Assembly: GCA_029964075.1 (NCBI GenBank)
Contig: CM057135.1
Coordinates: forward strand, 31,051,366 to 31,115,365
Length of the DNA: 64,000 nucleotides
From: Patiria pectinifera
Taxonomy: Eukaryota > Echinodermata > Asteroidea > Valvatida > Asterinidae
Reading direction: 5' to 3'
Within the stretch, counting starts at the first letter, position 1; each line of letters begins with the position of its first letter. The notes beneath the pieces are model-generated. The model made no database searches and had not been told where the DNA came from. It saw only the letters and a program-made list of their open reading frames with translations. The position numbers and the translations under genes were made by a program. Shown here in pieces: positions 32,288 through 64,000 of the stretch.

Positions 32288-34071
32288 TCAGCTAGATAGG
32301 CAGCCATTCAGCTCATCTCCAATCTGAGCAGGGTTGATTATCATGACTGCGTGATCTCGGACATCAAAAATTAAGGTAGTGTGGAAAGCAATGTTGCTGA
32401 AGACACAGAGATACTCAAAGAATGCAAAGATGCTATAGACTGTAGAAGGAAACAAAAGAATAATTGCAAAGATCGTAAAAATATCGGAAAAACAGCCTTG
32501 TATTGGTTTTTTTTTGTATCTACAAGAAAATACTTACCATATGGTTCACAGTAGCGATTGTGTCGATCAAAGAGATATGAAAAGCTGATGATTGACGCTA
32601 TGAATGTGGCAAACATGTAGAGCTTGTAACGATAGGAATATCGATGCTGCAAGAAAGCAGAAAAATGTTAAAATATTTGGATTATTCAATCATTGGAGAA
32701 TTTATTGAAAACTGAAATGAAATGAGATGTAATAAAGCTTACATCAAATCAGCAAAAAGCAATTTTTGTCTTCAGGCCAAGACCAAGGATTCTGTAGCCA
32801 TCCTAGATCTAGACTTTTGTTTTTCAAAACTCAAATGAATGCCAATCTTTGAAAATGAAATAATTTTTGTTATTCACCATGGGAGCTTTTCTTTTGTGAC
32901 ACAGACAGCATGTTGTGATCATGTGCAGCACAGCAAAGACAACAAAGAAGATGAAACATTTCTCATGAATACCTGGGAACAAAGATGATAGTGAGGCAAT
33001 GAATTAATAACAAACATTACATAAGACATATATAGTGAACAAGCAAAAATTTGCTCGCTTCGCACTCATTTAGTGCACCAATGTGCACCAACTCCTAATA
33101 ATTTGGTTCTTCTAGTCCAGAATTAATAACTTAGGAGATCTACAAGGTTAATGAAGAGATGTTTTGTGAGTTAACTAAAAGCCTTGAAAGGCTTTTTGCA
33201 GAAGAAGATCCCTTACTGTAATCATCGTTGGAGGAGACGTATGTCAGACCAACCAGACAAGACAACTCCGTCAGACAAAATCCCAGATTGACACGACACA
33301 AGGTCCTATAGCTGGGATTGGAGCTCCAGTTATGCAGATCCTGACTGTGCCATGTGTACCACAGCAATGCAAAGAGAATCCTTGGAGTGACGTGTAATGC
33401 TACGGCGATACGCCATATGTAACGCTGTGGGGTGAAGTTACCAATGCTAGCACTGATTGAGGGTAGGAAATTGTAAACCTGTAGAATAAATGGTAGAAGA
33501 TACAATCAAGAATGAGTTAAGTGAAAAAAAGAACTGTTTCAACACAACTTTTTAAATCACATTTTATGGAAAATGAGATCTTTTAAAATTTTAACAATGG
33601 TAAATTATCACTCAGCCCAAACCCCCCCCCCCCCCTTAGAAAAAAGAAAATATATTTTTATTATATATTAATTATTAATATAATATGATTATTCAATAAA
33701 CGTATTCATTTTATAGGTGCTGAATAAAATTTTGAAAATCACTTCTTACTCACATTACAATGCGTGTGATTAACTCCACTAAAATCCTTCCAAATTGAAA
33801 TGACAACACACAATACAAAACCAACGAGTGGACAACTCGAAGTAACTAATGCTAAAGTTCTCAACGAAAGTCGAATCATTCTGGTATCAATTTTCGACCG
33901 TTTTCCCATCAAACGAGGTGAAACACGTCTCAGGTAGCCTGGTGTGAATGTGAAAAGTAAATTAATCGCTGTACCTAGAAATAATGTTAAATTTAAGCTC
34001 GTCAATAACACCGCTAATAATAAATTTATCTCGCCGGGCCGTGATAAGAATCTCGTCCACAAAAGTGTCAT
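32288..34071 (-). CDS. Post-GPI attachment to proteins factor 2-like (PGAP2/FRAG1 family) protein
   Basis: Five exons on the reverse strand (34071-33754, 33478-33217, 32972-32878, 32646-32538, 32439-32288) join in phase to 311 residues. The sequence SIGNFTPQRYIWRIAVALH, then YRTLCRVNLG, LTYVSSNDDYS and the C-terminal EYLCVFSNIAFHTTLIFDV match PGAP2/FRAG1 proteins. PGAP2 is a multi-pass Golgi/ER protein needed for fatty-acid remodelling of GPI anchors. Several hydrophobic segments are visible (LLLAVLLTSLNLTLFLGTAI, LVGFVLCVVISIW, FIFFVVFAVLHMITTCC, MFATFIASIISFSYLF). The start is the first in-frame ATG of a 106-codon open exon. It is somewhat longer than human PGAP2, so it may be a PGAP2-like paralogue, and I give no firm symbol. 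The 3' end converges on DYNC2H1 and the 5' end diverges from UBE3A. Confidence 0.9.
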
Positions 34072-34941: not shown

Positions 34942-41999
<7,058 letters not shown>

Positions 42000-47494: not shown

Positions 47495-50400
47495 ATGGAC
47501 GTCAAGCTTACATCCAGTACACCTCCTGATTACGGGACACGTGATGAGGATGACCCGCCACCAGACTACGATGCCGAGGCATCCAAAGGTAAACATAATG
47601 GTCGCTGAAACAACTTGGTACAACTAATAAAGCCGGGTCCTGAGCGCACGCTATACGATATCACTGCCCGGAACACAGGTGACACTCAATGAGTCTAGTC
47701 AGGCACTAGCAAAAACTAGCTAGTGATACACCAAGGGACAGCTAGGTTGGCCGTTCAAATGATATAAGGATGTCTGTTGTTGAAAGTCTTTTGTTGACAC
47801 AACACATGCAGTTGCAGCAAGTTGGCAGATATGACAAAACCTGAATAGTTTACCTGGGATTGATGAGCTGAACACTTAGCTCCAATCCTGAACTGTACAC
47901 GTCCTAACAAAATGTCGATGCTGAGATCAAGCCAGGAAGCGGTCATGCCCACGGGCATGGTTTCCGAAACTCAGTTCATTATTTTGTCTAAATAAATGAT
48001 TTAATGATCAATCTTCTTTGTCACCATTTGATATGTTTTAGGTGACCCACCTTCCTACCTGTCAATAATTGATAAGATCGAAGAAGCTAAGTCTACGTCA
48101 TCAACGCAAACGGATTTCGTAACCACGACTGTTAAAATCATACTCAACACAGGTAGATAAAACAACATCGAAGATCAATACTGGTTTTCCTCGTTTACTC
48201 TACTTTCTTAATTTTGTTTAACAATTCGTAAATCAATTTATGCATGACCCGAACGAAAACCAGTTTTAAGCTGTTTTGGCATTAACCGGCATTGTAAAGA
48301 AATGTGATAAACATTGTACCCTATAATGTTTGGATTTTTAAAATGTTTATTTCTTGTTAATTAACTATCCTTTTGCTTTTACTTTTTAGTTATGGCTACT
48401 ATTTGTCTGGCATTGTCGATGGCTGTTCCAATAGCGATGATCGTAATGGGTAAGGCGTTCAGACTTTATCTATCCGTAACGTAAATGAACTTAATATCCG
48501 GCTCATTTTGTAGACCAGAAGGGTCAAAAGACTTCCAGTGAAAACAAAATAATTCCATCTCTTATTAATTTGCATCAGTTTTTGTAATCTTCGTTCAGGT
48601 GCTGTTTACATGAACGACTGTCCTGCAGAGCGAATGATCCCAATATACCTGACGGTGTTTGGGGCCGTCTACAATTTCAAGGCATCTATTGATCTTTGTA
48701 ATAGAGCTATCAAGAGGAAACACAAACGCAGGAAACTGTTTGGATCTGATCCCCAAGATGAGATCAAGTTTGTGATTGGTTTGAATTGGTTCAGCAGACT
48801 CATTGGAATATTGCTCTTCGGATTTTTCATCGCAGGTATGGGTGTTTTTTCCTGTATACATAGGCCTAGTTATATAAATGTCCTTGCTAAAAATAAGCTG
48901 TATAGGGGGCCATTCAGAATTTTCAATGTTTTAAAATTTCGATCTTTTTTTCCAAATTGTGGGTGGGTGGGTCAAGCTAAATAATTGAAAATCGAAATTC
49001 ACTTTCCATGGAAAAAGATAAAAAAACAAAGAAAAATAGATCTTTTGACTTGCCTGAACTACGCGCAAACGTTCCGATATCGCGATGCGTGTTTCTTTTC
49101 CAACTTCGTCCCCTGTATGTACTGTCAGTGGCGTAGCCAGGAATTTTTCAGTGGGGGGCGCTGGGGGCTGGAACATTTCATGGGGGGCGTCATGTAGATC
49201 AATGATAAGTTTTTTAGAAACTCAAAATCTCAGTGGGGGCGACTGGTGGGCGACAAGGTTTCATGGGGGGGCTGTCGCCCCCATGGCTACGCCACTGCAG
49301 GTCATACAGTTAAAGTTTATGTAAACTTGTATGAAAGTCAAAGAAAAGTAACTCCCATGATCTATTTGCAACAAGTTTGTGTTAACTTGCCGGTAACGCC
49401 CTAAAAAATTATCCAGACAAATATGTTCATTTTGTAACATGTTATGTTCGTCTATCGGTCTTCTATGCTGTTATGTTTACTTTTAGGTACCTTCAATGAT
49501 ACTATGTTTAATTAACCTGTTCATTTGTTTAATTAAACTAATAACGCACATGTAGTTGTCAAATATGGCACTAACAAGTTTGAGGTCGGCAATTTCGTCT
49601 TTAAAAATCTGGGTACGTCGGGTTACCGTACACACAATTGTCCTGGAAACAACAGTACCAAAGTACAGAAAGTCGTACGCAAGAGCTCCCCAGCAAGTAT
49701 CGCTGACGCCATTATGATTCCAAAATTTCTCACTGTGTCACACAGTGAAATAACTCAACAGCGTCGTTGTATTGTGAACACATAAAAGCATTCAAGTCGC
49801 GTTCTTGCACACTTAACGCAAGTCGACATAGATATCCTTGAACCACTGCCCCTGCTTTGCATAACAAGTGCACATGAATGAACGATTCGACTTTTTATTC
49901 AAAGAAATTTCTATGTACAGTCACCAGACTCTATTCAGTAAAGTCCCCGTCAAAACGAAAGTACACAATCCACGTGCATAACGCACGGCTACACCATCGT
50001 ACAGTGTGGCAGGGACACCAACAAGTAACACAACAACTAAACATTTTTTTAAAAATTGATAAATATTCTGATTGAATTTCGTTAAAAGATACTTGTTGGT
50101 GAGGTATCACATATTTTATCACATAAAAAGAGGAAGATCGACAACTTCACGCCGTCACTGAACTAGACACACATGTACATGGTGTTCAAGTACATGTACA
50201 TGCAAGTGCATGTACATGTACATGTTCAATTTTTTATTAATCGAAATTAGGGGTGGGTGGGTGGGTCAAAATAATTTGGAAAAAAAGTCGAAATTTTAAA
50301 ACATTGAAAATTCTGAATGGCCCCTAGGCCTATATAAAAATTCATGTTTATATAAACAGTTGAAGATAACAGAGCAGAAGATGTGGGATTGTCGAGGACC

Positions 50401-51119
50401 TGCAATCATGGATAGGCCTTCCCCGCCGGCCCTCCCACAAAATAAATAAACCCCATTGTTCAAAGAGCAAAGTTATCACACCCCTCTTCTTCTGCTAATG
50501 TACGCCTATAGGCTAACTCCATAAAGATGCTAAGCAGGAGAACCGAGGTTATCATTGCTAAACATTGCATGAATGGAGAACATTTTCAAGTTTCAATCCT
50601 CTCAACAAAAGACTGGACTGAGGCCCTCAATGGGCTTCAGTGCCAATTTGAAATTCCTCCATACTGCTTAGCAAATGTGTACACTAAGCAAAAATTAGCT
50701 GGAAACCAGTCACAAGCAACACACAGTGCATGGCATTTTGGCTGGTAACCTGATTTATCTTACCAAATGCAATCCGTGCTAAGCAAAACTGACCCCTGGT
50801 CTTGATTGTTTCAGGTAATGTGTGGGTCTATCGTATCTACGCACCGAGTAACGACCCCACGAGTCCAAACTACTGCTACGGTCCACTTTACTATTTCGCT
50901 TTTTGGGTGATCACCGTGGTGTATATTTTGCTGGGTTTGTGTTGCTGTGGTGTGACAACGATCTTCTGCATAGGCTTTGCATTTTGCTTCAAGATTTTGA
51001 GGAAAGTCAAGAAGTTTGTGGAAGCGCTTCGGTCTGTGCGTGATGCGGCAGCATCCGCCCGAGAAAATGATGCTCCTGAGGAGGAGGAGGAGGAGGAGGA
51101 GGAGGAGGACGAAGAATAA
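47495..51119 (+). CDS. TMEM272-like four-pass membrane protein, paralogue 1 (acidic tail)
   Basis: Exons 47495-47588, 48042-48152, 48390-48449, 48599-48835 and 50815-51119 join in phase 1 to 268 residues. The N-terminal tail has three PPxY motifs (TPPDYG, PPPDYD, DPPSYL). Four hydrophobic segments follow: ICLALSMAVPIAMIVMG, MIPIYLTVFGAVYNF, LIGILLFGFFIAGNVWVY and YYFAFWVITVVYILLGLCCC. The family signature is NDCPAERMIPIYL, like the DCPxxPxIPIYLLVxG block of TMEM272 proteins, whose function is not established. The C-terminus is a glutamate run encoded by a (GAG)n tract. The ATG has a good context (gcgATGg) but lies just after an acceptor-like ccataccag, so the true first exon may be upstream and non-coding. 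The last intron is expanded to 2 kb by a nested transposon. Confidence 0.85.
48905..50324. mobile_element. 1.42-kb transposon with ~55-bp inverted ends and TA flanks
   Basis: The left end gggggccattcagaattttc and the right end, reverse-complemented, match for about 55 bp (through aatgttttaaaatttcga, then a T tract and ccaaatt). TA occurs directly outside both ends (48903-48904 and 50325-50326), as in Tc1/mariner insertions. No transposase frame is visible, so it is nonautonomous or decayed. A second MITE (49126-49297) is inserted in it, and catgtacatg-rich palindromes lie at 50168-50230. It fills most of the last intron of TMEM272-like paralogue 1. Confidence 0.78.
49126..49297. mobile_element. 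Small MITE with CAGTGGCGTAGCCA ends, nested
   Basis: The element starts cagtggcgtagcca and ends tggctacgccactg, a perfect 14-bp inverted terminus. Its G-rich interior (tggggggc repeats) has no ORF. I found no clean 8-bp target duplication, so its superfamily is left open. Confidence 0.8.
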
Positions 51120-52384
51120 ACAATCCTGCCAAGATTTCCTCTTTTCTTCAAAAACTGTTGACACCTGTAGTTGCACTTGCAACGGCGTCAATGTTATTAG
51201 TGAAGTCTATCTGGTACACAATAGTTGTGTCTTTTTGTCACTGTATCCACATAGCACTTTTCAGAAAGAAAATGCGATACTATAAGAATCGGGTTTTGGT
51301 TATTGTCTTAGTCTGGTTGCTGTCTTTACTCTTGGCTAACTAACATTCATTGCAAGACAATTGTTTGGAATATAATATGTACTCATAACCGAGTGTACAA
51401 GTATTCAAGGCTCTTATCTGTGAATTTAATGAGATTTCCTTTTAATTTTCAACAGTCATATTCATGATTCTATACATGTAATACCTTGCTTACAAAGTTA
51501 GTACAACAGAGTATTAAACATATTTTTATGTCCAGTATAATTAAACGCCATTTACGCAAAAAATGATAATAATCAGCAAAATAGGCGGGAGGTTACTTGT
51601 TTTTTCCCCGTTCCCCGCCGATGACTATGTTGTGCCACTCCTTACACGCACTGATTGAAAGAGACGTGGAAGAAATGACACATCTAAATGAAAAGGGAAA
51701 AAATTGTGAAAAGTGAGCGCAAATGATGACTAACTGAAATTTTCCATCAGGTATTTACAGTATAATAGAAACATTGATGCGTAAACTGTATATAGCGGTG
51801 TTATAACTAACACACCGTACCAATATCAGCATGTCTGGGTCTTTTCATGCAAGTATGCCATCTAGTTTGAGTATTTTGCATATGAATTAAACTTTGCCCT
51901 TGCTCCAAGCTAGGGTGGCTTATAGATTTACAAGCAAACGTTTGTCACTGGTTCGTACGTGAGGATTAGGCCGTTACTTTAGGCTGTAGCCTTTATTATG
52001 TAAAAAAATAAACGTGAGGGGTGATGTCTAATGGGGGATAGGGAATTCTCAGAATAGATTCCCCCTTTTGTTGCTTATGTTTTTCTTGCTATTAAAGGTG
52101 CTTCACAACTTTCTCTCAGCTTACACTAAGGAAAAGTAAGTGCCTCGTAACAATACGATGTTGACTCGTGAATGATTTGCACGTGCCTACGCACACAACT
52201 ATTACGTAAGTAATGTTTACTTTTCTCAGTGACGACGCAGTGAATACTGATTGTAACCACGACACAACGTAAAAACGCAGTGTGCAGTGCTCTTGGCGCA
52301 TTAAGGCGTGGTACTTACATCCGGCCGGTTGCTGCTAAGAGACGTAAGCATTTGAGGAGCTCGGCAGACAATCTAAACTTCATC
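51120..52384. other. Gap between TMEM272-like paralogues 1 and 2
   Basis: The 3' UTR of paralogue 1 and the promoter/5' UTR of paralogue 2 lie here. An aataaa overlaps the stop codon of paralogue 1 and another is near 52004. I recognise no coding exon or repeat. Confidence 0.5.
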
Positions 52385-55300
52385 ATGTCCAACTCAAACC
52401 CTTCATTTCACGCCGGAGATGGAGACAAGGTAAGAATGGCATTTACAACATGAAAATTACGACACAAATATTAAGGTTCAGTTTTCTCATGCCGAAGAAC
52501 AATCTGACAAATACCGTGACCATGATGATGTAATTCCTTCCTCCATGCATGGAGCTATGTAACATTGCGATGGATTGGATCCTTAGCTAATCCATCCTTG
52601 AATTATAATTTTGCGCTGAACGAAGGAAATAGAAATCACCACGTTTTCCTGTTATTTCCATTTTTATTTCGGTTTTTAGGAGATGCTAGTTTAAATTTAA
52701 AATACAAATTGAGAAATCGTAAGAGGTCCGAGGAAAAAGTCCAATCAATGGAAGAAAACGGACACGACGAAATAAAATGTATAAGTCGTAAAGAAAAAAT
52801 GCAAAATCGGCCAAATTTGCTCTTTTACAACATCCATGAACAATAGTTTACTAAATAAGTAAAAACCTTGGTGATTTTTTTAAGGTCGAGATTTTAGGGG
52901 ACGATTTATTTATTCATTTGGGGGGGGGGGCGGGGGCTACCCATAGAACAGAATCACTGTGTGTGATGCATAAACCGAACTCAGCGACATGTGCCTTTTG
53001 TTTTGCAGGGAGTTAATCTGGATGGAAAAGATGGCCCGCCGCCCTCCTATGATGCAGAGGCCGGCAAAGGTATGAACAAATATTGGTATCCTAGCAACCA
53101 GCGAATATATACACAATCATCACCTGTCACATTATATACATGAATGATCAATTACTAAACTTTTCGGTTTATTATAATCTGAGATTTTTAAAAATGTGCT
53201 CCTTAACAGGTCCATGCACTAGGCCAGATTTGATCTGGAATTCGGAAACTAGTTTTGTTTTTAATACCTTTCAGAGTCAAAATCACACTTTATTTTGTTA
53301 AAATGACACTTTTTGTCGAGATTCAAGTCCAGGTCAAAATGACCCAGAGTATGATCCAGATAAGTGCCACTGTGACCCAAAAATGCGTCATATTGAACTC
53401 GAACCTATATGCCCAATATAAACTTGCCACTCAAACCCCCATGACCATGGTGTTTTATATTGTGCCATCGAATTATGCCATCAATTTAATTTTGTAATTT
53501 TGTTTGATTTAAAATATGTTAATTTAGTTTTCTTTGGTTGGTGTGCTTTAGGTGTTCCTCCTACTTACAAATCTATCATGGAGCAGATTAAAGAAGCGCA
53601 GTCTACGTCATCCAATCCTGCGAACTTCGTTGGCAAGTCAACCAATATCGTATGCAAATCAGGTAATCTGAATTTTTAAAGAAATTTTCAAGTTTTTTTT
53701 TTTTTGGAGATGTCAATATGCCAAATTTTATGATGAAATTATTTTGTGTGTGAACATGTTCAATATAAACCCTTTTGAGATATGATGCAGGATACACGAG
53801 GGCGCTGTTTGTAGAGTGGAAACTCTAAATTAAATTTTTCCATCGTATAATACCACGCCCCCACCCCAACAAAAAGCCTAGTGATGCTCTGGCTTGAATA
53901 TTGTGTACTATTAGTTTTACTTATCTCCACATGTTGATTTCAATCGCACTTTGTGATGTGACACTTGATTGTTTTTTCTTTGTATAGTTGCTGTTACGAT
54001 CTCCATGCTGGTGTCGCTTGCTCTACCGATAGCGATGATCGTGATGGGTAAGAATACTTCTTTAAAAAGTCTGTTTTTAAGACCAAGAAATAAAAGTCGC
54101 ATTCCTAAAGAATCGGATCTGTCAATGCAAGTTACAGTAATGTTTTCTTGTAAGCTTTGAACTCGAGTTTAAAACGAGATAAACACGAAGGACTTTATCT
54201 TTGTTACGTTGCGCTTTAAAAGAACAAACGGAGTGCTCTAAACTGAAAAAGAGGCCAATCGGGAAGAAATTTAAGGAATTTATGGGGACAATGACACTGG
54301 CACTGTCTGTAATGAACGTGCAAACGTTATCCTCCAGTGTCGGCATGAAGCAAACTATGGTATTACCATGCAGCTTGGCGTAGCTCACTATGGCTGACAG
54401 TCACTGTGCATGACAAAAAGTGAAGACCAACTTTCATATTCTTGCTTGATTCGCAGAAGCCATGCACTTCTGATAATTGTTGACTTCTCTAATTAATTGT
54501 TTTGATGTTACAGGTTCAGTCTACGACTGCCCTGCCGAACGCATGATCCCCATCTACTTGGTTGTTGCTGGATCCGTCTCTATGTCCAAATTATCCTGTG
54601 ATCTTATCGGAAGGGCTTCCCGCCAACACTATGTCGGCCGTGGTGACTGTACGGAGGAAGAATATGACAAACAAAAGTGCACTATATTCTGGAATTGGTA
54701 CAGCCGAATCCTGGGGCTATTTCTCTTCGCGTGGTTCATCGCAGGTAGGCCTATATATTTCTTCTATCAAATAATTTGTCAAGGAGCGCGGATCCGGGGG
54801 GAACCACCCCAGCTCTGTCAATTTGTTTTTGTTTCTTTTTCATCGAAATTCCATAAAAATAATGCGAACCCCCCCCCCCGCCCCCGCCCCCTGCTCTGAC
54901 ACCCCCCCCCCCCAAATAAACTGGCAATAACGTCCGCCTGTGCACAAAATACGGACAGAGCCAGCTTGGTTGGGGTATTTAATCGTCGGATTCGAACCCC
55001 GCGAAAATTTCTGGACCGCCCCTTTTTGTTGTAATTTTGTTTGCATAGTTTATGCGGGGGGTCCTCTTTTCATGAGAGAGAGAGAGACTCGGTTAATTAT
55101 TATGACATCAAAATCGTGAAGAGAGATCCAACCTGTGTAGTTACAACGGGCCCGCCACCGCATCCCGTTACAATAAAATTCACTCTCCTCGAATTGAATT
55201 ATTGTTGTAATTTTGGTTTTCTCCTGAACAGGGAATGTGTGGGTCTACCGTCTCTACGCACCCAGTAATGATCCTCTGAGCTCCAACTATTGCCCCGCAC

Positions 55301-55476
55301 CGCTGTACTATTTTGCTTTCTGGCAGATTACCGCTACCTACATCTTCATAGCAGTGTGTCTGTGTTGCGTGTCTACCTGCTGCGTGATTGCTTGTTGCGC
55401 TTGCTGTAAAATGGGAGCTAACATGGCCGAGGCCCAGGCAAAACAAGATGGCGGATATGGATCCACAGGTCCTTAA
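52385..55476 (+). CDS. TMEM272-like four-pass membrane protein, paralogue 2
   Basis: Exons 52385-52429, 53009-53069, 53552-53662, 53988-54047, 54514-54744 and 55232-55476 join to 250 residues. The tail has two PPxY motifs (GPPPSYD, VPPTYK), followed by the EQIKEAQSTSSNP block that aligns with paralogues 1 and 3. Membrane segments are ISMLVSLALPIAMIVMG, MIPIYLVVAGSVSM, ILGLFLFAWFIAGNVWVY and YYFAFWQITATYIFIAVCLC. The signature VYDCPAERMIPIYL is kept. The C-terminus is cysteine-rich (CCVSTCCVIACCACC), suggesting palmitoylation as an inference, and ends in a short glycine-rich tail rather than an acidic one. Unlike paralogue 1 it has a separate 15-codon first coding exon. Exons of 111 and 60 bp are identical in length to those of its neighbours. 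Confidence 0.87.
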
Positions 55477-55547
55477 GAATGATCAGTCGTGTAGCGACTT
55501 GAAGACGGGTTGGTCTATGGAGGCATCCGATGAAACAAGTACATATG

Positions 55548-55553
55548 AATAAA
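55548..55553 (+). promoter_or_regulatory. Candidate polyadenylation signal of paralogue 2
   Basis: AATAAA lies about 70 bp after the stop codon of TMEM272-like paralogue 2, giving a short 3' UTR. Confidence 0.5.
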
Positions 55554-56866
55554 TGAACAATTTGAAATGTATTTCAAAAATGATACATATCCCACATTAC
55601 CCTAGCGGATCCCCCCCCCCAAAAAAGAAATCCTTAATTTTTCAGGAAAAAATTGTTTTCCAAATGTTAAAAACGAAAAATACTCCAGCCCCCCCCCCAA
55701 AAAACCCTTTTAGTTCTGTATGGATCCGCCCTTGTTTTCCAGTATACCTTTTCCCCATCCCACTCCCAGGAAAAAAAAACGCATTTGTTTATGCTAGCCT
55801 AGCCTTATGACATCGATTATTTGTAACTCTGTTATCTTTTAGAGTCATCGTATTTATGATCACTTCCATTAGAGAGGCCGGAGCCGAAGGATAATCACTG
55901 CAGTGTTTACACCCGATGTCTCTTAACACCTAGGCCAAAATGTATTAGAAAAGCTTTTCGATACCCATTTTAGGCGAAACTTTGAGTTATTTAATTAATA
56001 TTTAATTAACATTCTTTAAATAAGTTCATCTGGATTGTTGGTAAAACAAGAGTTTAGAGATTCGTTTTTTTTCCACGCCCACACTGAAGAACGTCCTCTA
56101 TATGACAACCAAGAAAGGGTATAAAGGCAGTTGAGCATTGGACATGGTTGCCAGTATGACGAAGCTCCTAGTTTAGGAGTGAAACGTAACTACTAAAAAT
56201 CGTGAGTAACATCTTCACGTTTTGGCATTGAAAAAAACGAATCTCCTGAATCTTGTAATTAACATTTTTTTTATGTACACGAACGCTTCTCTGTTATTTA
56301 TGTCGTAGTTTAAAATTTAACCTTTTAATAGCCTTACATGCTTATAATATTATCTGCTTTTTATCAAGGAAACCAATTGTGTATGCATGTCCTCAAGTTG
56401 AGGTATAGATATAGTAGCCATTAGTTAATAGTGTTATGTAACAATGTTTGTAATTGTAGTACAAATAGTGCTTTGCTGTTTTGATAATGTTGCATGTTGT
56501 ATTATATGTGTGGTAGGCTAGACCTTGCAAATGAGAAATGCATTATATCCATTCAAACTCAATGTGTGGCAATCTTTTAAAAATAAAAACTATGAAGTAC
56601 TAAGCGCAAGTTTTGCAGTCTATAGTGTTCAAAGCAAGAAGTGCACTGAGTGTAAAGTTTCAACACAGTGTAAAGCGAGTGGTCACGGTGTTCCGTTTTA
56701 CTCCGCCTACAATTTTATAGCCTCAGTCAAGCTTTCCCATTTTATTGGTCTAATTCAAGCTACCTGCATGCCCAAATTAAGGAAAGCGGTGTACTGCATG
56801 GTGTTAGTGGCCAAATGGGGAAATATTAAAAAGAGGGAAATAAGGCCAAATTAAAAATAAAAAACA

Positions 56867-57154
56867 AACATGTTAGGGCCTAAGCGTCCACGCCCGCTTC
56901 CTTTTTGGAGGCTGCCTCCTTTTTTTAAATTGAAAAAAAAAAAATTGCCCATGTAAAGCTGGTATGTCATTTCCTGAGTCCAGGTGGCAGCCATTTTGCA
57001 TTTAAAAACAAAAGCTGGCGGCCATCTTATAATATAGCTCGGCCGGTCGTTTTGGAAAATGGGTCGGGCCGCACTCGGGCGGCCATTTCGGGGGGGAAAC
57101 GGGGCCTCCTTCCCTTTTTTGTCAAAAAGCAGGGACGATATTAAAAACATGTTT
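56867..57154 (-). repeat. MITE-like element with AAACATGTT ends (copy 2, reverse)
   Basis: It is the reverse-oriented relative of the element at 42800. It shares aaagctggtatgtcatttcc and tgagtccaggtggcagccat with that copy's complement, and ends aaacatgttt. Ends and core agree, but homopolymer-rich parts have diverged. Confidence 0.75.
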
Positions 57155-58223
57155 ATTTGGCCTTATACAGTTCTATCAGAAAATAAATATGACTCCTCGA
57201 GGTTTATCATGGAAGTTTTGGATTAGACTTTATAATCGGAAACATCGAGTCACTGTTACAAATAATTCGGAGCTGAGAAGTTAATTGTGTCCTTTTACCT
57301 TATCTACAGGGGGAAAAAAAATGTCGACCGTTCATAGAGTAATATACAATGCGCTTCTTTCACGACCCCGCCACTCGCGGTCCACGCCCCCCCACACCCC
57401 AGATACTCGCCATACACTTCGGCCGAGATTGAATACAGGCCCATACGCGGGGAGGGGGGGGGGGGGCTCGCTCGAATCCCCTATAGGTGCCGCCGATAAA
57501 TTCCGCTTTTGATAACCCACATGGTAGGGGAACAGTGGTAGGAAACCTTACTTAGATTGCACTTGAATAGGAACATCCATTTGGACCCCCGCCGAATGGC
57601 GCTCAGTCTCGCGCACTATCAAGTTCCACTTTTGACGGCCCCGCCCCCCAAATGGGATCACAAAACTGAGGACCGTTACTCAACCCCCGGATAAGATAGT
57701 AAACCTATCACTCGCGTTCCATTCCGGCATTGGCCTCGCCAGGATTTTTTTCTAGAGGGGGCAAAGCACATTCCCCCCAAAGAAATCCCTGTAAGTTTTT
57801 ATTTTATTTTATTTTTTTATTTATTGTAATTTGTAACGAGGGTAGTCAAGTTCCAGCATAATAGGCCTATTCTCGATTTATCATCAATTTCGAGAGTAGT
57901 CAGGGACATCTTCCTAGTTCCTACCCCCTCCCAAACCCAATAAATTAACTGCAATATGAATTTTTTTTCTCTCTTCAGTTTTTTGCCTTTCCGGGGGGGG
58001 GGGGGAAGCGCCCCCCTCCCCCTCGCGACGCACATGAATCCCGGATAGTTCGATCGGTGTCTTTTCGAGGAAGTGCCGCGCCTGTAGTCGCGAATTTCAT
58101 GACGTTGTTGTTGACATATCTGTAGTCGTCTGGTACCTGTTCAGCTCAACGCGTAAACGCACACCGTAACTGCGTACCAAAGATCCCGGGTCTAAACTAC
58201 TTGTGTCACGTCACCGTGTCACC

Positions 58224-61200
58224 ATGGCGGACGACGAAGGACCTATCATCATGACGGACAAGGTAAGAAAAAATGTTGGATCTTTGCCACAAGAACAAAT
58301 GAGAAAGCTACCGAGGACATGAGAAAGGAAGGAAAACGTGTGTGGCAGCATGGTGGTAGTATCAGCAAAATTGCACAGGCAGTCCTCATCTTTAGGGTCA
58401 AATATTCAGACACTGTAAAAATGTCAATTGCTTTCGAAATTTGAGTTTCGTTTTTCATAAGTCATATGCAGTACAGTCACATTCAGGGTGACCGTAAGGT
58501 CAGAGCCAAATTCTGCTAAATGCACATCAAAAATCTGTCAGATTTATAAAAAAATCTGCCAAATTCCCCAGAATTACTCGAAATACACTATTAACACTGA
58601 AAATCACATGCAGATTGGTAGTATTGCCTTAATTAAGATTCAAATTACATAATATTAATAAACAATCTAGTCAAGATGTTGTGAAATTATTGGTATAATG
58701 GTAAATATATTAGATAGTGGATATTTTGCCGGAGGAAATGACGGCAAACTAACGTTTACTAAAGGTTTGCCGGCAGCAATCCATATCAACAGAGGGCGCT
58801 GTACTCTTTAAGATAGGGCTGAATTATAAGATGTATTAAATTCCCATCAAAAGTTGTGTAGCACGGTTGGTGTAGTGGTTAAGCTGAAGCTCTTGTGAGC
58901 GGGATGACTCGGGTTCGATCCCGATCGCCGCCACATTTTTAAGTTTTTTTTCCCATCCCCAAATAAATAAGACTATTCTTCTTTTATTATTTTAATACGT
59001 CTCAAACATTTTATTGCAGAGTATTACATTTTCTTTTTCAGATTTGTGGCTCTGGAGGATTTTTTTTAAAAGGGAAATAAAGTCCGAAATTATAAAATGG
59101 TCTGAATCCCATCTTGTGAATACGAGGTTACAACGATAATATTGGCATGGAGCCAGACTAAAATTGGTCAGCGGAAAATGTTTAAGTACAAAAAAACAGT
59201 GACTGCGCATGTTCAGTGCATATCCGGCAAACTAACATTTACTAAAGGTTTGCCGTCTCCGGCAAAATATCCACTGCCAATATATTATTGGGCAAAACGC
59301 GGATCCGGCTGTGACAAAGTCCGTTTTCCAGTGAACCTCAACACCAAGACCAGCCAACCTGTCCCATTATGCAAGGGTTTGTTTGAAAGGATTGAAGCTT
59401 TTTTTTAAACAAATGTAGGCCTACACTTTTTTGTTCAAATTGCTGTTTTTCTGTCAAATAACCAGTTTTTGCAGAATTCTGCCAGAAATCTTCCAAAAAA
59501 ATCCATTCTGTCAAATTTTCTGTCAAACTCATTTTTTTAACAAAAATTCTGTCAAAGTTAGCCGAAAATCGGCTAAAACGGTCGCCCTGGTCACATTATG
59601 ACATGACATAAATGGGCAGGTTGGTGGGACACTTTGTCCAGCTAGGTTAAAAAGAGGCGTTTGTGAAAATAATTGTATTTGTATCAAATAACTAATATGC
59701 CTACATGCAGATGCAACATTGTACTAGTATTTAGACACCGACCACTTTGTCAGTTTGTGAGTTTGTTGGAAAACCCCGGCCGCCCATTTTGTTGGATCTG
59801 GGAATTCCCGTTTTTATTATCATGATTTGATTATTTATTTAGCCTAGCTAAGTTTTTTTTTACATGTTTCCTATTAAGCTAATTGTATTCAAAGTCTATG
59901 TGAGGCAAAATATTTTATTAATTATCAGCCCTAAATTTAATATTTGTTTTGGGTCGTCTTATCAAATTTTGTGTAGTATCGGACACCTCTATTTTTTACT
60001 TGTTCTGTTCAAAAGCGAAGGAGTGTCAATTCCAAAATTACTTTTGCAGCCTCCAGCAGTCTTTGTTATTTAGATAATTAAACTCTTTAAGGTTCTATAA
60101 ATTTTATGAATACTTTGGATGAAAATGTGACTTTTTACCTGTTTTTTGCAGTAGTGACGTGCGGGTCACTGAAGTTCAGAGACTATTTCCTGTTTGCGGA
60201 AGTTTTACCCCCATAATTTCCCACATAAAACAGAACCCTGCATTCTTTCTACAAAATTAAGCCTGCCTATATTGAACATGGTATCTTAGCAAACTGTTCA
60301 GGTGAGTCCAAACAAATAAGCGACTTTTCGTGCTTTTATCATCGCCAAAATATTAAGTGAAGTCCCGAAACAGGACTGTCTTTTTGTTCTCTTGTATGGA
60401 ACAGGGTCCTAAACTGCATGATTACCCCAAATTTAATTATTCTCCTAATTCCCCAATTTAATTTTGGGACTTCCTACAGACCCCTGGAGATGAGGATCCA
60501 GAACTTGGTCTTACAAATAGTGTACCTCCTCCCCCTGACTATGGCACGAGTGTGAAACCTGCTGATCCTTCCATTGAAACTCCACCCCCAGCTTACGATG
60601 AAATTGCACAAGGTATGTGTGTTAAAAGTCATGTCTCATGTACTGTATTCCCATGTTTGAGCATAACTTTAAAGCTAGCTTAACCAAGAATAGAAATGCT
60701 TGATTCTAGATTGACAAGTCAGGGTTTCCTTTGGAGAGTATTGTGAGTTCATTGCATCTGAATGTCAGAAAAAAAGAGATACAGGGAGGGGTAGTTTTCA
60801 TGTGAATTTGTAACTGAGATCAAATTTAGTCATCTCAGTTTCAAAGGGAAACTCAACGTTGCGGACAGTATACTCTGCCCGTCGTCAGGGAAGGGGTTCC
60901 AACAGAGAAGGGGTGTTATTATTATTATTATTAATCATTTCTGGTAATGAAACCAAGGATTCCTCAAAAGCGCCCAAGGCACTGTAGCTCGCAAGCCTGA
61001 AGAAACCTGTAGAGAGAAGACAATGAGAAGAAGTTACAGTTTTAGAGGTGGGAGGAAAAGCCCAGAAGAATATTTTGGGGAAAACCCACGGAATCAGGCA
61101 GGGACTGAAAACCCAATCCACATATTGGCCCAGGCGGGATTCAAATCCGGGTCACAGCGGTGGAAGGCGAGGAAAGTACCGCTACGCCAACCTGACTGCC

Positions 61201-63042
61201 CTTAATGTAGTGTGACTGGAAGCAGTGAAGGGCGTGAAGGACCCAGTATCTCCTGCTCTGGTTCCACAGTTGCATCATTCACGCCCTTCACTGCTGGAAT
61301 CCCTTCAGTCTCCTGACGACAAGCAGAGCGTACTGTCCCAAACGTTGAGTTTCCCCAAGTTTCTTTTAAGAACCTCACAAACTCACAAAAGAGATTTGTC
61401 AATGATACTACTCTAACCTTCACCTTATTAGTAAGGTAAGACTAATATAAATCAACTTGAACACAGTCTTGGCCTATACCTTCATATTCAAAAAGCTGCC
61501 AAAAGAGTTTGGTAGTGCTTACTACCTTCACTACGTATCTGACAAAACTCTTTCAGATATTTAACACAGTATTAGGCTGTGTTCCTGATGAATGTTGTTT
61601 TGTAATGATTTCTTAATTTTGTTCTTGACAGATGCCCCACCTTCCTACCAGGACATTTTTGGCAAGATGAAAGATGCCAAGAATACATCCTCCACTCCGG
61701 CGCACTTTCTAGTCAAAGTCATCAGCATCTTACTCAACACAAGTATGCATGAGCAGTTTTAGATTTTTAGATGTAATACCATCCCAGAAATGAAGGAGAT
61801 GTGAAAAAAAACCCCGTAAATGTATCAAATGAATGTATCAATGTCTCATATTGCTGTGTCCTTTTGTTGGTTTCTTGAACTTCGATTTGACCTACAAAGT
61901 TGAACAGATTGTAATGTATGGTAGGAGGAAAAATGTCTTGTAATTATTGTGTTCTTAATTCTTGTTCTGTTTTACAGTTGTTGTCACAGTTGTCCTGGGT
62001 ATAATGCTGGCTATTCCTATCGCTATGATTGTAGTTGGTAAGAGTTTACAACACAAGTCTTTTTTTTGGTTTTCAAAATTGGTTGGTATTCCAATTAATT
62101 CAGATATTTAACCGTGGTTTTTGTAAAGTAAATTTTTAGACAAAATTCCAAACATTTTTGGATGAATTGAATGATGAACTGATAAATCTAATTATCAAAT
62201 AAAGTGAATGTATCGGAGCCCAAAAGTGCAACGTATCAAAGATAAACAAATAATTGTAATTTCTAACAAATATTTTTGAAGACGATGGCACTTTGCATTA
62301 ATAATCAAATTAGATGTGCGTATGCCGCTTTAAAAGTTTTTAAATATTTTGTTTTACCCGCAGGTGCCATATACATAAATGATTGTCCCGTTGAGCCTAA
62401 GATCCCCATCTATTTGGTAGTGACTGGATCCTTCTACATCCTGAAATCAGCCATTGATCTGATCGTCAGGTGCAAGAGGAGACAAGACCAAGACCCTGAA
62501 GGCAATAATGAGGAAGAACCGGAGAACAGAAAAGAAAACACTTTCAGTCGTCTCATAGGATGCTTCCTCTTTGCATTCTTTATTGCTGGTAAGTTTTCCT
62601 GTTTTCCTTTGAAACCTTTGCCAAACTTCACTGTTTGGTTTAGCAAAGAGATTAAATGAAACAGGATTTACATCCGTACTACCTATGATACTGCCCTAAC
62701 AAGTAAGTTTTGAAGCGAAACAAGACATTTATTATTGGGTTTTGAAAAGTGTATGCGACTATCCTGGCAAATTAAAGAAGACTTTACTTAAAGAGCACAT
62801 ATTTGGTGGGATTATATTTGGTTTGTTTGATTTTATAATTGTTATTTTCCGTTTGATTGCTAGGTAACGTGTGGGTGTACAGGAACTATCCACCGAGTGA
62901 CCACAGCGGCGACGCTAATTACTGCTTTGGTCCGTTGTACTACTTTGCCTTTTGGATCATAACAAGTTGCTACATCCTGGTTGCATTAGCATGCTGCTGT
63001 GTCTGCTGTGCTGCAGGTGCAACTGCTGCTGTTAGTGAGTGA
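58224..63042 (+). CDS. TMEM272-like four-pass membrane protein, paralogue 3
   Basis: Exons 58224-58262, 60480-60612, 61632-61742, 61978-62037, 62364-62588 and 62864-63042 join to 248 residues. The start context is near-ideal (accATGg). The tail holds three PPxY motifs (PPPPDYG, PPPAYD, APPSYQ), then FGKMKDAKNTSSTP. Membrane segments are TVVLGIMLAIPIAMIVVG, KIPIYLVVTGSFYI, LIGCFLFAFFIAGNVWVY and YYFAFWIITSCYILVALACC. The signature is YINDCPVEPKIPIYL, the copy closest to the TMEM272 consensus. The cytosolic loop is highly charged (KRRQDQDPEGNNEEEPENRK), and the short cysteine-rich C-terminus ends AAGATAAVSE. Intron 1 (2.2 kb) is inflated by nested transposons and intron 2 by a foldback element. 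Confidence 0.88.
58705..59285. repeat. Nested inverted-repeat element inside the hAT element
   Basis: atatattagatagtggatat (continuing tttgccgg) at 58705-58732 matches the reverse complement of 59259-59285. Just inside both ends lies a 31-bp hairpin word (cggcaaac ... gtttgccg at 58742-58772 and 59225-59255) in the same orientation. The two copies differ at one or two bases. Confidence 0.7.
58861..58935 (+). repeat. tRNA-derived SINE head
   Basis: tggtgtagtgg matches the pol III A box and ggttcgatccc the B box at tRNA-like spacing. The T stem and acceptor stem do not pair properly and the 3' side runs into T-rich DNA, so it is not a functional tRNA. It is the innermost layer of the nested insertions in intron 1 of TMEM272-like paralogue 3. 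Confidence 0.65.
60846..61355. mobile_element. Foldback element with ~44-bp arms
   Basis: gggaaactcaacgttgcgga...gtcgtcagg (60846-60889) is inverted at 61312-61355 with about six mismatches. Within it, agcagtgaagggcgtgaa (61221-61238) is a perfect 18-bp inverted repeat of 61278-61295, and 61130-61200 is a tRNA-like segment on the reverse strand. It lies in intron 2 of TMEM272-like paralogue 3. Related fragments occur at about 11180-11235 and 18785-18830. Confidence 0.72.
61130..61200 (-). repeat. tRNA-derived SINE fragment inside the foldback element
   Basis: On the reverse strand, TGGCGTAGCGG fits the pol III A box, and GGATTTGAATCCC is a B-box-like word about 40 nt later. The stems are degraded. 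Confidence 0.55.
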
Positions 63043-63186
63043 AAAACTGAAGCAAGTTTGGAGAAATCACTCTTCAAACTGTTGTTTCCGATCTGATAAA
63101 GCTGCTAAGCAGACAAAGATGCTTACTGGTTACCAACTGATTATCTATCAACATGTCATGGGATATCATAGAGTTATATTTAAAAC

Positions 63187-63509
63187 CTAGAGAGCACTTT
63201 CCCTGTACGCGCATGTGCCGACATGGACGCGCAACCGCCATATTTTAGATGGAACAATGGAAGACATTTGAATTGTTTTCTAAATAAAGCGCTTGCGTGC
63301 GTACGTATGACGTACGTACACCTTGCATTCAGAGACTGAGTGCACTTGCGCAGTTTGTTTACTTTGACTGAGCTGATGACGTTTCCAAGCCGTTGCTAAG
63401 CCTGGCAGGGCTTATGACCAATCCTGATTGGTCCACCTAAGGTATGGTGGCAGCACGTCCATGTTGGCATGTCCGCGTGTGCGCGTTGTATACGGAGTGC
63501 GCCCTCTAG
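63187..63509. repeat. MITE-like element just downstream of paralogue 3
   Basis: The ends ctagagagcact and the reverse complement of gcgccctctag pair. The similarity continues over about 60 bp (cgcgca...gacatggacg...ccgccatat), imperfectly. A pol II polyadenylation signal (aataaa, 63283-63288) lies inside the element, about 240 bp after the stop codon of TMEM272-like paralogue 3. Confidence 0.6.
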
Positions 63510-64000
63510 TTTTTGAAATATAACTCTTATGTGGGATATATATCAGTCAGTTGTGACAGGCACCCTGCTCAATTTTATGTAGCAGAATAAGTTACTATGT
63601 ATGATTTTTCTGTTAAGTAGCTCCAATATCTAGGTTGACGTCTGACTTTCAAATTAAATTTTCTTCAATTGTTTTTTGTTTTTTTATATGAAGGGTATGA
63701 ATCAGGAGATTGGTTTTCACTCAGATACATGACATTTATTTTCATCAATGGCAGACTACTTGTGGAAAGAAGATTGTCTATCACCCTTACCTATTTTCTC
63801 ACAGGATCTGTTTGGGGCTAAATAACACTAGTAGTTTGTTCTTTTTCACAATGTACAGGTTAACAGGTGGGAAGCAAGTTCAGTTAAATTTTCATTAGTG
63901 CAATGTCGCCTTGAATTATGTGATTCAGCTTTCATTTTATTGTTAAGTGGTCTTCAGTCTTTAATAAAAAAAGAAGAGTTTTTGGAGCAAATTATGTTTA
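63510..64000. other. 3' flank, nothing recognised
   Basis: A/T-rich DNA without an exon I can support. One aataaa at about 63963 could be a distal polyadenylation signal for paralogue 3. Confidence 0.4.

What the first reader, a model, noticed from the sequence alone, without database searches (positions are those of the whole stretch)
47495..63042. Tandem cluster of three PPxY-tailed TMEM272-like proteins
Seen: three consecutive same-strand genes share phase-1 introns, a 111-bp exon, a 60-bp first-TM exon, the DCPxExxIPIYL signature and the GNVWVYRxYxPS block. Each has two or three PPxY motifs before TM1. The loop between TM2 and TM3 and the C-terminus (poly-Glu, or cysteine-rich) diverge strongly. 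Known: PPxY binds WW domains, e.g. of NEDD4-family ligases, and TMEM272 itself has no settled function. Inference: an expanded family of membrane adaptors that recruit WW proteins through the conserved tail and vary their cytosolic output through the loop and C-terminus. The pattern resembles NDFIP-type adaptors but in a different fold.
Basis: partly seen in the sequence, partly recalled or inferred. Interest (0 to 1): 0.75.

Follow-up and report, generated by a model that had tools for sequence, protein, structure and literature searches.

The report
PPxY-tailed four-pass membrane gene trio
Three neighbouring genes encode related, probably four-pass membrane proteins whose tails carry short docking motifs of the kind that bind ubiquitin-ligase WW domains; the genes look real, but relatives elsewhere in the same genome have lost some or all of the motifs that could be found, so docking is unlikely to be the whole family's essential job.

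Summary
Genes A (47495-51119), B (about 52385-55476) and C (about 58224-63042) share phase-1 GT-AG introns, a 111-bp exon, a 60-bp TM1 exon, DCPxExxIPIYL and GNVWVYR. They carry 3, 2 and 3 PPxY motifs, which are all 8 PPxY strings in the three + frames of the window. In B and C the PPxY-bearing first exon lacks an ATG; a start exon is only predicted.

Genome searches gave five further relatives (C', D1, D2, E1, E2). PPxY is not fixed: C' lacks one motif through a 54-bp in-frame difference, D has one in its tail (others read APTY and PPPF), and E has none that I found (SSNW/SSYW in exon 2; its exon 1 was not found). All eight keep the membrane core, one cysteine in each predicted outer loop and a juxtamembrane A..TSS....F stretch. 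Where PPxY survives in exon 2 it reads PPxYxx[IV], close to the extended PY motif of ENaC.

Most likely A-C recruit NEDD4-type WW-HECT ligases, as NDFIP or TMEM127 do, through an unrelated four-pass protein. This is inferred, not shown. No Pfam family reached its cut-off; the TMEM272 label could not be tested. Verdict: a good but modest new candidate of a known kind.

The parts
47495..47588 (+). gene A exon 1: ATG and two PPxY (PPDY at 47522 and at 47558)
   Evidence: GT donor, phase 1
48042..48152 (+). gene A exon 2 (111 bp): PPSYLSI (from 48047) and A..TSS....F stretch
48390..48449 (+). gene A exon 3 (60 bp): TM1
48599..48835 (+). gene A exon 4: DCPAERMIPIYL, TM2, basic loop, TM3
50815..51119 (+). 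gene A exon 5: GNVWVYR block, TM4, charged C-terminus ending in (GAG)n-encoded poly-Glu
52385..52429 (+). gene B candidate start exon (MSNSNPSFHAGDGDK, phase-0 donor); prediction only
53009..53069 (+). gene B exon with PPSY (from 53039)
53552..53662 (+). gene B 111-bp exon: PPTYKSI (from 53557)
53988..54047 (+). gene B 60-bp exon: TM1
54514..54744 (+). gene B exon: DCPAERMIPIYL, TM2, loop, TM3
55232..55476 (+). gene B last exon: GNVWVYR block, TM4, cysteine-rich C-terminus
58224..58262 (+). gene C candidate start exon (MADDEGPIIMTDK); a similar one is found at the C' copy; prediction only
60480..60612 (+). gene C exon with PPDY (from 60531) and PPAY (from 60585)
61632..61742 (+). gene C 111-bp exon: PPSYQDI (from 61637)
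61978..62037 (+). gene C 60-bp exon: TM1
62364..62588 (+). gene C exon: DCPVEPKIPIYL, TM2, loop, TM3
62864..63042 (+). gene C last exon: GNVWVYR block, TM4, short C-terminus, TGA stop

Best explanation
A, B and C are duplicates, lying in tandem, of one gene for a membrane protein that probably crosses the membrane four times with both ends in the cytosol. Their N-terminal tails carry two or three closely spaced PPxY motifs. These most likely bind the WW domains of NEDD4-family HECT ligases, bring the ligase to a membrane, and help ubiquitinate either a partner held by the membrane core or the protein itself. Shown here by sequence: the exon structure, the motifs, the paralogues, and loci with WW and HECT exons side by side in this genome. 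Inferred: topology, WW binding, ligase choice and any substrate. The number of tail motifs runs from 3 to none found across the paralogues. If binding is real, A and C should act most like NDFIP2, whose single PY mutants all activate WWP2 much less than wild type; D should act like the single-motif TMEM127, which binds but does not activate alone; E should not bind.
For: All 8 PPxY strings in the + frames of the window lie in these three tails; shuffles reached the count in 0, 0 and 1 of 20,000. In 6 of the 6 paralogues that keep the exon-2 motif it reads PPxYxx[IV], close to the PPxYxxL extended PY motif of ENaC (PMC2582799, passages). Hydropathy gives four TMs in 7 of 8 (TM2 of A falls under the cut-off), with the K/R-rich loop on the tail's side. 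WW and HECT matches lie together at C13:18.50-18.51 Mb, C18:8.71-8.73 Mb, C1:22.13-22.15 Mb and C11:2.00-2.02 Mb. A four-pass precedent exists: TMEM127 with one PPAY (PMC7342019, section 11).
Against: PPxY is not conserved across the family: exon-2 motif absent in E1 and E2, proximal exon-1 motif PPPF in D1 and D2, one motif missing in C'. The recent pair C/C' shows 23 nonsynonymous and 4 synonymous changes, so purifying selection on it is not visible. No binding, expression or cross-species data were available.
Confidence: 0.5

Rival explanations
1. The membrane core is the functional part (channel, transporter subunit or receptor partner) and the PPxY motifs only set the protein's own turnover: it is a ligase substrate, not an adaptor.
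For: The core, the two outer-loop cysteines and GNVWVY are kept in 8 of 8 genes while PPxY is not; the GNVWVYR..FW block has dN 0.11-0.27 against 0.38-0.57 for the tail in A/B, A/C and B/C. ENaC is removed from the surface through its PY motif.
Against: Two or three clustered motifs seem more than a simple degradation signal needs (my judgement); A-C keep them although synonymous sites are saturated (overall dS 1.3 to 4.1).
Confidence: 0.35
2. The tail is chiefly a tyrosine sorting signal (YxxPhi) read by clathrin adaptors, and the prolines are incidental or tune it.
For: Exon-2 motifs read YLSI, YKSI, YQDI, YQAI, YSSV and YSSV; E2, which lacks the prolines, still reads YWPL. The YxxPhi consensus is recalled, not from a call.
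Against: PP is kept together with Y in these 6 genes; the exon-1 motifs of A and B (YGTR, YDAE, YDAE) are not YxxPhi; E1 lost the tyrosine.
Confidence: 0.15
3. The PPxY motifs recruit WW proteins that are not ligases (YAP/TAZ, WWOX or MAGI type; these names are recalled).
For: 48 WW matches at E up to 0.01 in this genome, of which those of four places lie beside HECT matches.
Against: The exon-2 form PPxYxx[IV] resembles the NEDD4-binding ENaC motif; preference was not measured.
Confidence: 0.15

Closest known systems
NDFIP1/NDFIP2 (Pfam NEDD4_Bsd2, PF10176)
   Same: Several PPxY motifs in a cytosolic tail; NDFIP2 has three PY motifs (PMC12720080, section 5). That they stand ahead of the first TM is recalled.
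   Different: No NEDD4_Bsd2 match; NDFIPs have three TMs (PMC8811627, passage), here four predicted; a separate NDFIP-type match lies at C7:25.27 Mb.
TMEM127
   Same: Four TMs, both ends cytosolic, PPxY needed for WWP2 binding (PMC7342019).
   Different: One PPxY, at the C-terminus; does not activate WWP2 alone (PMC12720080, section 7). Sequence kinship not compared.
ENTREP/FAM189A2
   Same: Membrane protein with two PPxY motifs, reported as an ITCH activator (PMC8811627, abstract and passages).
   Different: Single-pass type I protein whose motifs lie in a long cytoplasmic C-terminal region.
TMEM272
   Same: Not tested; the resemblance is recalled only.
   Different: No Pfam model reached its cut-off and no TMEM272 sequence was at hand. 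The 13 and 3 papers that hold the name (listings only) show no functional study in title or abstract start; TMEM272-like found none.

Membership tests
NDFIP | NEDD4_Bsd2 domain (PF10176) | tested here: not met
   not among the matches listed at E up to 10 for A, B or C (the search filters drop most very weak matches)
NDFIP | three transmembrane segments | tested here: not met
   four segments in 7 of 8 by hydropathy; in A only three pass the cut-off, but the fourth aligns. A hydropathy count, not an experiment
NDFIP | multiple PPxY motifs ahead of TM1 | tested here: met
   3, 2 and 3 in A, B and C
NEDD4-family membrane adaptors (functional class) | PPxY-dependent binding to WW-HECT ligases | not testable with these tools
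   needs a binding assay
NEDD4-family membrane adaptors (functional class) | PPxY conserved among family members | tested here: not met
   exon-2 PPxY in 6 of 8 paralogues; orthologues not available
TMEM272 | sequence homology to TMEM272 | not testable with these tools
   no Pfam family over cut-off, no related solved structure for A, no TMEM272 sequence held
claudin, MARVEL, tetraspanin families | Pfam domain of those families | tested here: not met
   none among the matches listed at E up to 10

The most novel reading that the evidence does not exclude
The eight paralogues form a natural dosage series of tail PY motifs (3, 3, 2, 2, 1, 1, none found, none found) on one four-pass scaffold. Duplication followed by motif loss would then have turned ligase activators into partner-dependent adaptors and into non-binding family members that may blunt the others.
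Probability: 0.15. Interest if true: 0.65.

Novelty: new member of a known kind. Interest (0 to 1): 0.4.

Why it matters
If WW binding is shown, this would add an uncharacterised four-pass family, without a match over cut-off in the Pfam copy used, to the known membrane adaptors of NEDD4 ligases. Its paralogues, with motif numbers from three to none found, would let one test how PY number sets ligase activation on one scaffold.

Tried and rejected
An 18-base GNVWVY pattern gave four matches, among them one on C9; the 8 kb around it held no family exon, so it was dropped. A 16.8-bit exon-4 match at C7:32.77 Mb showed only weak matches with stops and was dropped. COX1 was sought to place the organism: none found; the species stays unknown. 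A PPPPTY-containing stretch about 12 kb upstream of exon 2 of E1 looked like an exon 1; it lies outside the large blocks shared with E2 and overlaps by only a few bases the edge of a 75-bp, 75% block whose E2 counterpart has no PPxY, so it was rejected. Orthologues and transcripts could not be had.

Seen as chance: Pfam matches below cut-off (for A DUF2207_C, 7tm_6, MIF4G_like_2, Ribosomal_60s; for C CrgA, PAP2 and TMEM171, the last a 7.5-bit match in the tail; none for B) and weak PDB matches of A.
Full report
What is there. In each, the last four introns are phase 1 and GT-AG; exon 2 is 111 bp and the exon that encodes TM1 is 60 bp. The next exon carries DCPxExxIPIYL, TM2, a charged loop and TM3; the last carries GNVWVYR, PLYYFAFW and TM4. 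B and C are each 50% identical to A. The three PPxY sets (3, 2, 3) are all 8 PPxY strings found on the + strand of the 64-kb window in three frames; the - strand has 6. Shuffling each tail reached the observed number in 0 (A), 0 (B) and 1 (C) of 20,000 trials; the tails of B and C include the predicted start exons.

Corrections to the gene models. Exon 1 of B and of C has no in-frame ATG and starts at a phase-0 acceptor. Candidate start exons are 52385-52429 for B and 58224-58262 for C; a similar one is found at the copy C'. For A the ATG at 47495 may be the start, but a CAG that could be an acceptor ends 9 bases upstream, in frame. No start exon was found for D1/D2 or A by the same scan. No transcript was available. 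The poly-Glu end of A is a (GAG)n run, so I put little weight on it as a designed output.

The family in this genome. Four protein queries, two on the last exon and two on the exon before it, agree on eight genes: A, B, C; C' on C19 at 26.0 Mb; D1 and D2 on C7 at 36.45 and 36.48 Mb; E1 and E2 on C22 at 3.36 and 3.49 Mb. One search also gave a ninth, 16.8-bit match, which I dropped. Counts are lower bounds by the tool's own statement. C' matches C in five main pieces at 86-96% within 58221-63528, introns included; D1/D2 match at 93.5 and 95.5% in two main pieces, E1/E2 at 79-92% in seven pieces, short repeat-like pieces left out. A FastTree tree joins C with C' (support 0.99) and A with B (0.98); the link of D with E has support 0.16 and says nothing. 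D1/D2 and E1/E2 could be uncollapsed haplotypes; the family would then count six.

PPxY is not fixed. The exon-2 motif is PPSY, PPTY, PPSY, PPSY, PPSY, PPSY in A, B, C, C', D1, D2, but SSNW in E1 and SSYW in E2. The proximal exon-1 motif is PPDY, PPSY, PPAY, PPAY in A, B, C, C' and PPPF in D1/D2. The distal exon-1 motif is PPDY in A and C only; D1/D2 read APTY, B has nothing there, and C' lacks it through a 54-bp in-frame difference (exon of 133 against 79 bp). As A has the motif at the same place, loss in C' is the simpler reading; the two proline-coding stretches of C that bound the missing part are alike, which fits slippage. Exon 1 of E1/E2 was not found. No PPxY occurs in the gene-strand frames of the two 9.5-kb loci that hold E1 and E2. 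In the next 9.9 kb upstream E1 has three and E2 two. None lies in the large blocks that E1 and E2 share; one of E1 overlaps by a few bases a 75-bp, 75% block without PPxY in E2, and 500 bases upstream of E1 read N. D1/D2 have one more PPxY string (PPLY) in the predicted outer loop, where cytosolic WW proteins could not reach it.

What is conserved instead. All eight keep A..TSS....F between the motif and TM1, the P..M.V.G end of TM1, DCP....IPI.L, GNVWVY, one cysteine in each predicted outer loop, and PLYYF.FW. Hydropathy gives four TMs in 7 of 8; in A, TM2 falls under the cut-off. Both ends and the K/R-rich loop are then cytosolic. A disulphide between the two loop cysteines is a guess.

Selection. 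In the deep pairs synonymous sites are near saturation (overall dS 1.3 to 4.1), so only dN is compared. Tail, TM2-TM3 loop, GNVWVYR..FW block and C-terminal part give 0.39, 1.21, 0.11, 0.68 (A/B); 0.38, 1.06, 0.23, 0.54 (A/C); 0.57, 0.65, 0.27, 0.61 (B/C). The tail is thus kept better than the loop, though hardly so in B/C, and less well than the block. In recent pairs the nonsynonymous and synonymous changes are 23 and 4 for C/C' (p = 0.37 against neutrality), 1 and 5 for D1/D2 (p = 0.005), and 7 and 10 for E1/E2 (p = 0.004). C/C' differs from D plus E (Fisher p = 0.0004), so C or C' may evolve under relaxed or changed constraint. Codons opposite gaps, among them the 54-bp difference, are not in these counts; the predicted start exons of C/C' are.

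How it may work. PPxY binds WW domains. Where the exon-2 motif survives it reads PPxYxx[IV], close to the extended PY motif PPxYxxL of ENaC that binds NEDD4 ligases (PMC2582799, passages). The genome holds four places in which WW and HECT matches lie together (C13, C18, C1, C11). NDFIP2 has three PY motifs; each single mutant activates WWP2 much less than wild type, whereas single-motif TMEM127 binds but does not activate (PMC12720080, outline with abstract, sections 5 and 7). TMEM127 is a four-pass protein with a PPAY (PMC7342019, passages and section 11). I therefore favour ligase recruitment by A-C (0.5), with self-turnover of a protein whose core does the work as the main rival. The 111-bp, 60-bp and DCP exons are symmetric 1-1 exons, so the exon with the conserved motif could be skipped without a frame shift; whether it is skipped is unknown.

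What it is not. No Pfam family reaches its curated cut-off for A, B or C and no related solved structure was found by sequence for A. It is not NDFIP: no NEDD4_Bsd2 match, and a separate NDFIP-type match exists at C7:25.27 Mb (E 1.1e-13, over the cut-off, with one stop read through). Kinship with TMEM272 could not be tested. Searches for TMEM272 (13 papers), transmembrane protein 272 (3 papers), dkey-19b23, a recalled fish gene name (none) and TMEM272-like (none) showed no functional study in the titles and abstract starts listed; I read none of those papers.

Verdict. The adaptor idea is reasonable for A-C, but the prediction that all PPxY tyrosines are conserved fails within the genome itself.

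Noticed in passing
35339-41993: A UBE3A-type HECT ligase gene (AZUL and HECT exons, + strand) lies just upstream of the trio. UBE3A has no WW domain to my knowledge, so the neighbourhood is probably chance.
   Followed up: partly
4921-27031: Exons of a cytoplasmic dynein 2 heavy chain gene on the + strand (DYNC2H1_AAA_dom, E 8.7e-35; other dynein domains).
   Followed up: partly
32371-33505: Frag1/DRAM/Sfk1 family exons on the - strand between dynein and UBE3A (E 5.9e-17 for 33140-33505; 32371-32667 matches below the cut-off).
   Followed up: no
C/C' pair: window 58221-63528 and L009 1350-6501: A recent copy of the gene C locus sits on another large contig (C19); its coding changes are mostly nonsynonymous (23 against 4).
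   Followed up: yes
G000, several contigs: WW matches with the same score in open frames of about 160-300 aa on C5, C7 and C9 (and two alike on C16), and HECT C-lobe matches in open frames of 671-792 aa on C1, C6, C13, C15, C21 and C864: possible repeats or mobile elements carrying these domains.
   Followed up: no
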